NCBI RefSeq assembly: GCF_000687475.1
Contig: NC_057318.1
Coordinates: 4,092,001 to 4,156,000, forward strand
DNA: 64,000 nt
Source: Ustilaginoidea virens
Taxonomy: Eukaryota > Ascomycota > Sordariomycetes > Hypocreales > Clavicipitaceae
Direction of reading: 5' to 3'
The notes beneath the pieces are model-generated. The model searched no databases. It worked only from the letters and a program-made list of their open reading frames with translations, and was not told the DNA's origin. Shown here piece after piece: positions 15,783 to 16,214 of this stretch (position 1 is its first letter; every line of letters starts with the position of its first letter). The position numbers and the translations under genes are program-made.

Positions 15783-16214
15783 ATGCGCTTCACGCCTTTC
15801 GCCACCGGCATCGTCTGCCTCTTTGGCGCCGTCCTGGCTCACCCCCTTGCCCAGTCGCCCGCCGACGCCTGCTGCTGCTGCGATATTTCCCGCAGCGTCA
15901 TCAGCTGCAACCTGTCGGTGCTGGAAAAGGACTGCGTGTGCGCGGCCGTCCAGTGCCCCGACGACGCTCCCGTCGTGTACCAAGACGACGGCTCCGCCCG
16001 AGCCCCCAGGCCGGAGGCGCCCGCGTCATCACCGGCCGTCCGGGACGCTCGTCCTGCTGCTGCCAAGAACGCCTGCTGCTGCTGCGACGCGGGCAAGAAC
16101 GTCATGAGCTGCTCGCGAACGATTACAAGGGACGACTGCATGTGCGCTGCTGTCGAGTGCCCCAGGAATGCGCCGTGGGTCTGGGACGACGGCAAGCTCA
16201 TCGGGAGCAAGTAG
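15783..16214 (+). CDS. Small secreted protein with duplicated eight-cysteine module
   Basis: Intronless, 143 aa. Residues 1-19 are a signal peptide (basic start, hydrophobic core, cleavage plausible after VLA). The mature part holds two copies of one module with identical spacing, CCCC-X8-C-X8-C-X-C-X4-C: cysteines 30-33, 42, 51, 53 and 58, then 98-101, 110, 119, 121 and 126. The copies are offset by exactly 68 residues and share CCCCD, DC(V/M)CAAV, CP and a following DDG. A Pro/Ala/Arg-rich linker (about 71-96) joins them. All 16 mature cysteines are even in number, as expected for disulphides. The pattern is not the hydrophobin, CFEM or LysM signature and I do not recognise the family. An extracellular role, for example effector-like, wall-associated or metal-binding, is only inference. 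Confidence 0.85.
   Translation: MRFTPFATGIVCLFGAVLAHPLAQSPADACCCCDISRSVISCNLSVLEKDCVCAAVQCPDDAPVVYQDDGSARAPRPEAPASSPAVRDARPAAAKNACCCCDAGKNVMSCSRTITRDDCMCAAVECPRNAPWVWDDGKLIGSK

What the first reader, a model, noticed from the sequence alone, without database searches (positions are those of the whole stretch)
15783..16214. Secreted protein built from two identical-spaced eight-cysteine modules
After a signal peptide, the pattern CCCC-X8-C-X8-C-X-C-X4-C occurs twice, 68 residues apart, with matching CCCCD, DCxCAAV, CP and DDG positions. Four adjacent cysteines are rare in disulphide proteins. The spacing fits none of the fungal secreted families I know (hydrophobin, CFEM, LysM, cerato-platanin). 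A TATA box and small intronless gene suggest regulated, high expression. The module could be a metal-binding or effector-like unit.
Basis: partly seen in the sequence, partly recalled or inferred. Interest (0 to 1): 0.75.

Follow-up and report, generated by a model that had tools for sequence, protein, structure and literature searches.

The report
Fungal secreted protein with four-cysteine modules
A fungus encodes a small, probably secreted protein made of two copies of a compact, undescribed module that starts with four cysteines in a row; related fungi carry the same module, and in this genome a third copy looks decayed.

Summary
The ORF 15783-16214 (143 aa) is real and carries CCCC-X8-C-X8-C-X-C-X4-C twice, 68 residues apart, after a hydrophobic leader. 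No shuffle gave the pattern twice (0 of 200,000). Genome searches with three proteins found this locus only. No significant Pfam, NCBIfam or PDB match. Eight relatives were found, four with species names, all Hypocreales; the nine proteins hold 21 modules, 2 or 3 each, with eight conserved cysteines. AlphaFold2 gives one module a compact three-stranded fold (mean pLDDT 87) without a significant PDB match. Some relatives have a third, distinct module; here the frame past the TAG holds a microsatellite and a degenerate stretch like module 3 at 16440-16526, whereas modules 1 and 2 keep all 16 cysteines. Best reading: a disulphide-locked, multivalent extracellular protein of an undescribed hypocrealean family, probably a wall or host-interface binder with unknown ligand. 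Metal binding is less likely. A new variant of a known kind, small secreted cysteine-rich proteins.

The parts
15506..15513 (+). TATA-like box TATATAAA, about 270 bases before the ATG
   Evidence: 4 TATAWAWR in the window, 2.5 expected, 26 of 100 shuffles with as many; consensus match only
15783..16214 (+). ORF of 143 aa, one open frame from ATG to TAG
   Evidence: homologues
15783..15839 (+). Probable signal peptide, residues 1-19 (cleavage after A19 inferred by eye; most hydrophobic 12-residue stretch tested in the first 25 residues starts at residue 8)
   Evidence: sequence; hydropathy; similar leaders in relatives
15870..15956 (+). Module 1, residues 30-58, eight cysteines
   Evidence: 61.9 bits against a profile of 19 homologue modules that left this protein out
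15987..16073 (+). Ala/Pro-rich linker, residues 69-97 (34% Ala, 17% Pro, no KR or RR)
16074..16160 (+). Module 2, residues 98-126, eight cysteines
   Evidence: 60.7 bits against the same profile
16212..16214 (+). TAG stop; relatives P0003 and P0005 continue from here to a third module
16230..16366 (+). GCTGCT/GCTGCTTCT microsatellite; in the frame of the gene it reads as Ala/Ser repeats
16440..16526 (+). Degenerate stretch like a third module, same frame as the ORF; several of the eight cysteines are gone and part is readable only in another frame
   Evidence: no Pfam match for 16215-16622

Best explanation
The ORF encodes a secreted protein of an undescribed hypocrealean family. Shown: two eight-cysteine modules, the same eight cysteines in 21 modules of nine proteins, linkers of very different length, module number varying between relatives, and a stretch like a decayed third module downstream. 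Predicted by computation: each module is a compact domain of three short strands, the CCCC run forming most of the first strand. Inferred: the protein is exported, the cysteines form four disulphides per module (neighbouring cysteines in a strand point to opposite faces, so each of the four could bond to one of the four downstream cysteines), and the protein works outside the cell as a multivalent binder, two or three rigid heads on a flexible Pro/Ala-rich tether, at the fungal wall or at a host or microbial surface. The ligand is not known. In this fungus the third head has been lost while selection has kept the first two.
For: Pattern and shuffles. Relatives with the same modules: P0002, P0003-P0009, sequences modules, the same 21 found by profile plus one non-significant hit. 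Linkers from 29 to 214 residues against modules of near-fixed spacing. AlphaFold2: one module mean pLDDT 87.0, pTM 0.61, strands 5-10, 15-23, 40-43; whole protein with modules at 73-88 by ten-residue block and the linker at 41-47. Disulphide logic: even cysteine number in 7 of 9 proteins and the pair flanking module 3 in P0003, P0005, P0009, absent together in P0007 and P0008. Third-module stretch: second-best of 1999 six-frame segments of the window for a module-3 profile made of homologues only (E 0.01, just below the program's inclusion line); 1 of 1000 shuffles reached its score, 0 of 1000 without the microsatellite; a six-frame search with P0003 runs past the TAG to window 16529. Modules 1 and 2 are 71% and 64% identical to their best relatives.
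Against: No ligand, expression, localisation or phenotype data. Both structure predictions rest on 9 and 10 rows, and the whole-protein model is weak (pTM 0.35). P0004 and P0007 have five cysteines in a row in module 1 and an odd total, which does not fit a simple all-disulphide scheme. The paired flanking cysteines may be a single event in close relatives. Disulphide partners were not seen: no coordinates were available. The third-module stretch scores only 11.4-12.8 bits, and the general module profile does not pick it out (E 9.2). Loss of a module could also mean relaxed constraint on the whole gene.
Confidence: 0.5

Rival explanations
1. A secreted metal-binding protein: the CCCC run and the C-x-C chelate copper or zinc, as in metallothioneins.
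For: Eight cysteines in 29 residues, one C-x-C per module and Asp or Asn after CCCC in 21 of 21 modules; odd cysteine count in P0004 and P0007.
Against: Leader for the oxidising secretory route; aromatic residues in the modules of 9 of 9 proteins and histidine in only 2 of 9; flanking cysteine pairs present or absent together; confident compact fold without metal (which cannot model metal).
Confidence: 0.12
2. A host-directed effector of a plant- or animal-associated fungus that blocks a host defence protein, working like the repetitive wall-bound effector Rsp3 of Ustilago maydis.
For: The named relatives come from Conoideocrella, Metarhizium, Epichloe and Paramyrothecium, genera that live with insects or plants (recalled); P0006 and P0008 pair cysteine modules with imperfect short repeats; Rsp3 is repetitive and decorates hyphae (PMC5923269, abstract read).
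Against: No expression data. In this genome a single locus was found, not an expanded family (copy number in relatives not tested). It sits among conserved genes.
Confidence: 0.22
3. A precursor that is cut into small cysteine-rich peptides, each module being a released toxin-like or antimicrobial peptide.
For: Modules of about 40 residues, predicted rigid and separated by linkers predicted with low confidence.
Against: No KR or RR in the linkers of 5 of 9 proteins, this one included; 1 or 2 in the other four (KK was not counted).
Confidence: 0.08
4. A gene on its way out: the third module is dead and the two-module ORF is no longer functional.
For: Degenerate stretch downstream in the same frame; apparent module loss also in P0006, P0008 and P0009.
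Against: All 16 module cysteines and their spacing are intact while the neighbouring third module has decayed; the predicted protein P0006 also ends shortly after module 2 (its DNA was not seen); frame-specific GC3.
Confidence: 0.12

Closest known systems
Uncharacterised hypocrealean proteins QQS21_009395 (Conoideocrella luteorostrata), MAM_02459 (Metarhizium album), EsDP_00002347 (Epichloe bromicola), HJFPF1_02788 (Paramyrothecium foliicola)
   Same: Similar leader and the same CCCC modules with eight cysteines; homologues.
   Different: 295-327 aa; P0007 has three modules, P0006 modules 1 and 2, P0008 and P0009 module 1 and a module-3 type; linkers up to 214 residues, in two of them made of short repeats.
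Hydrophobins
   Same: Small secreted fungal proteins with eight cysteines.
   Different: Pattern C-CC-C-C-CC-C (PMC8596622, passage); here CCCC-C-C-C-C per module; no Pfam match.
Hyphosphere proteins (HFS)
   Same: Small secreted cysteine-rich fungal proteins.
   Different: Pattern C-CXXXC-C-C-C-C-C (PMC8596622, passage of the summary), no CCCC run.
LysM effectors such as Ecp6, and Rsp3 of Ustilago maydis
   Same: Several binding or repeat units in one secreted protein; analogy of layout only (Rsp3: PMC5923269 abstract; LysM recalled).
   Different: No LysM or other significant Pfam match in any of the nine proteins; no direct sequence comparison was made.
Fungal metallothioneins
   Same: High cysteine density with C-x-C (recalled).
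   Different: Leader, aromatic residues, predicted fold; no direct sequence comparison was made.

Membership tests
Hypocrealean CCCC-module family (defined here) | CCCC-X8-C-X6 to 8-C-X-C-X4-C | tested here: met
   Two copies with X8; 61.9 and 60.7 bits against a profile that left this protein out
Hypocrealean CCCC-module family (defined here) | Leader followed by a short stretch and then module 1 | tested here: met
   Alignment; two rows, P0005 and P0009, carry extra residues before the leader as predicted proteins
Hypocrealean CCCC-module family (defined here) | Third module with X7 spacing (5 of 9 proteins) | tested here: not met
   Absent from the ORF; only a degenerate stretch downstream; not needed for membership, P0002, P0004 and P0006 lack it as well
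Hydrophobin | C-CC-C-C-CC-C | tested here: not met
   Cysteine positions; pattern as given in PMC8596622
CFEM, LysM, cerato-platanin and any other Pfam family | Match to a curated profile | tested here: not met
   0 families at E up to 10 for this protein; over all nine proteins only three families at E 0.014-0.095, one member each, none of them CFEM, LysM or cerato-platanin
Metallothionein | Binds metal through thiolates | not testable with these tools
   Needs purified protein
Effector | Acts on a host; raised expression on the host | not testable with these tools
   No expression or infection data held

The most novel reading that the evidence does not exclude
The CCCC module is a new disulphide fold: a strand of four consecutive cysteines whose side chains alternate between two faces and each bond to one of four downstream cysteines, used by Hypocreales as a stackable extracellular binding head whose number (two or three) is gained, lost or left to decay between lineages.
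Probability: 0.3. Interest if true: 0.65.

Novelty: new variant of a known kind. Interest (0 to 1): 0.42.

Why it matters
Runs of four cysteines are rare in proteins thought to be disulphide-bonded (recalled, not tested), and this module has no significant match in the family and structure libraries searched here. If the pairing holds it would be a new small disulphide scaffold with a simple modular logic. The locus also seems to show, in one place, two modules kept and one lost, which would give an internal yardstick for selection on a secreted cysteine-rich protein. The function is open, so the biological importance is not shown.

Tried and rejected
Paralogues: six-frame searches of the genome with P0001, P0003 and P0007 found only this locus; the tool scores only its best candidates and ignores introns, so distant paralogues are not excluded. 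Bacterial/archaeal and viral contigs: 52 and 128 pattern stretches, none confirmed. A search with the four short modules (A2) returned nothing because no candidate shared three words, which says little about single-module relatives. In one search only the 7991 candidates sharing most words were scored, so the number of relatives is a lower bound.

PacC link: the gene upstream reads like PacC (recalled), so GCCARG sites (recalled) were counted; 7 between 14100 and 15783 against 170 in the 64-kb window (window total above all 100 shuffles) is not distinctive, and the idea was dropped.

Literature: ten searches were answered; only listings were seen. Searches returned no paper. In the other listings I saw no title or abstract start that names such a module. 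One search listed 14 of 15 papers; one, on plant Bs5, has 'four consecutive cysteines' in its abstract and was not read. One search looked for CCCCDI, CCCCNPG and four relatives' tags and found one 1818 text by chance. PMC6374014 (passages): its SspO has eight cysteines, but the passages seen give no spacing, so a relation could not be tested. PMC8596622 (passages) and PMC5923269 (abstract and outline) were used for comparison.

Module tree: no branch reached the starred support level; the module-3 group had 60/85 (88/96 without P0007) and the group of P0001 module 2 with P0006 and P0005 module 2 had 82/86, so module descent is only suggested.

Full report
What is there. The ORF 15783-16214 encodes 143 residues. 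A hydrophobic leader is followed about ten residues later by CCCC-X8-C-X8-C-X-C-X4-C at residues 30-58, an Ala/Pro-rich linker, and the same pattern at 98-126. In 200,000 shuffles of residues 20-143 the pattern appeared once in one shuffle and never twice. The two modules are 50% identical over 42 aligned positions. A TATA-like box lies about 270 bases before the ATG.

Relatives. One search with the protein gave one relative (1 of 26 candidates). A search with the pair gave 8 proteins at E up to 10 among 7991 candidates scored, the first relative included. Four carry species names, all hypothetical or uncharacterised: Conoideocrella luteorostrata, Metarhizium album, Epichloe bromicola and Paramyrothecium foliicola. 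Taxonomy look-ups place Conoideocrella and Metarhizium in Clavicipitaceae and Paramyrothecium in Stachybotryaceae, all Hypocreales; Epichloe was not looked up and is placed in Clavicipitaceae from recall. This protein's modules are closest to the unnamed P0003 and P0005 and to P0006 and P0008 (modules 1 and 2 at most 71% and 64% identical), so the window probably comes from Clavicipitaceae; no call named the organism.

The module. A pattern search found 21 modules in the nine proteins, two or three each. That search demanded the cysteines, so a profile of the 19 homologue modules was also run over all nine: it found the same 21, plus one non-significant hit (E 9), so no cysteine-poor module was seen there. 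Modules 1 and 2 of most rows have eight residues between the fifth and sixth cysteine, module-3 types have seven, and the second modules of P0002, P0004 and P0007 have six. Pro after the last cysteine is kept in 20 of 21 and Ala three residues later in 19 of 21. P0004 and P0007 have a fifth cysteine before the CCCC of module 1.

Known families. Pfam gave nothing for this protein at E up to 10, nothing for the four modules of A2, and only three single-member weak matches over the nine proteins. NCBIfam gave none for P0001 and three far below their cut-offs for P0002. PDB sequences gave no credible match. Hydrophobin and HFS patterns differ.

Fold. AlphaFold2 with ten rows gave one module a mean pLDDT of 87.0 and pTM 0.61, with strands at 5-10, 15-23 and 40-43 of the 46-residue piece; CCCC is residues 6-9 of it. 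The whole protein had mean pLDDT 69.3 and pTM 0.35, good in the modules and poor in leader and linker. Foldseek found no significant PDB match. The alignments are shallow and a missing match does not show a new fold.

The third module. P0003 and P0005 have a third module 90-91 residues after the second, P0007 one 52 residues after; P0008 and P0009 have module 1 and a module-3 type only; P0006 has modules 1 and 2 only. In this genome the frame after the TAG runs through a microsatellite at 16230-16366 into a stretch that resembles module 3. A module-3 profile built only from homologues ranked this stretch second of 1999 six-frame segments of the window, after the ORF itself, at E 0.01 (just below the program's inclusion line); the next was 0.44. 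The general module profile did not pick it out (E 9.2). Against dinucleotide shuffles of the same region, 1 of 1000 reached its best-domain score, and 0 of 1000 when the microsatellite was left out. The match covers 16440-16526 (from residues 76-104 of the segment). A whole-protein search with P0003 runs past the TAG to window 16529. Several cysteines of the module are gone and part of it is readable only in another frame. I read this as a decayed third module. An assembly error at the stop or in the stretch cannot be excluded.

How it probably works. Export, disulphides and extracellular binding are inferred. For disulphides: the leader, seven of nine proteins with an even cysteine number, and the paired presence or absence of two cysteines that flank module 3 in five of five cases, which may be one event. 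Against: five-cysteine runs in two proteins. For a binder: heads of near-constant spacing on tethers of 29 to 214 residues, a layout seen in multivalent wall and host-interface proteins (recalled; Rsp3, PMC5923269, abstract). The ligand is unknown. The contrast between modules 1 and 2, intact, and module 3, decayed, suggests that the two-module protein is still used.

Setting. Ten neighbouring open frames were scanned with Pfam and seven matched: topoisomerase, Stb3, a fungal transcription factor, PUF, NTF2, L10 and TIM; a C2H2 zinc finger lies in the next gene upstream. No effector cluster was looked for systematically.

Verdict. That I found nothing in print rests on the ten searches listed under Tried and rejected, in one open-access library, of which only listings were seen.

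Noticed in passing
P0006 and P0008 (relatives): The linker between their two modules is built of about ten-residue imperfect repeats like EEGIMSILPVK, absent from this window's protein and from the Metarhizium relative P0009.
   Followed up: partly
window about 11975-14026 (+): The next gene upstream has C2H2 fingers and reads like the pH regulator PacC (name recalled; the joining of its exons is inferred); whether the CCCC gene sits next to it in relatives was not testable.
   Followed up: partly
window 16230-16366: A 137-base GCTGCTTCT microsatellite directly after the stop codon, in the same frame as the gene; one search lists 23 tandem-repeat rows between 14000 and 18500.
   Followed up: partly
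window 19741-20382 and 22314-23084: Stretches of short repeats that read as long open frames on both strands; probably not genes, not examined.
   Followed up: no
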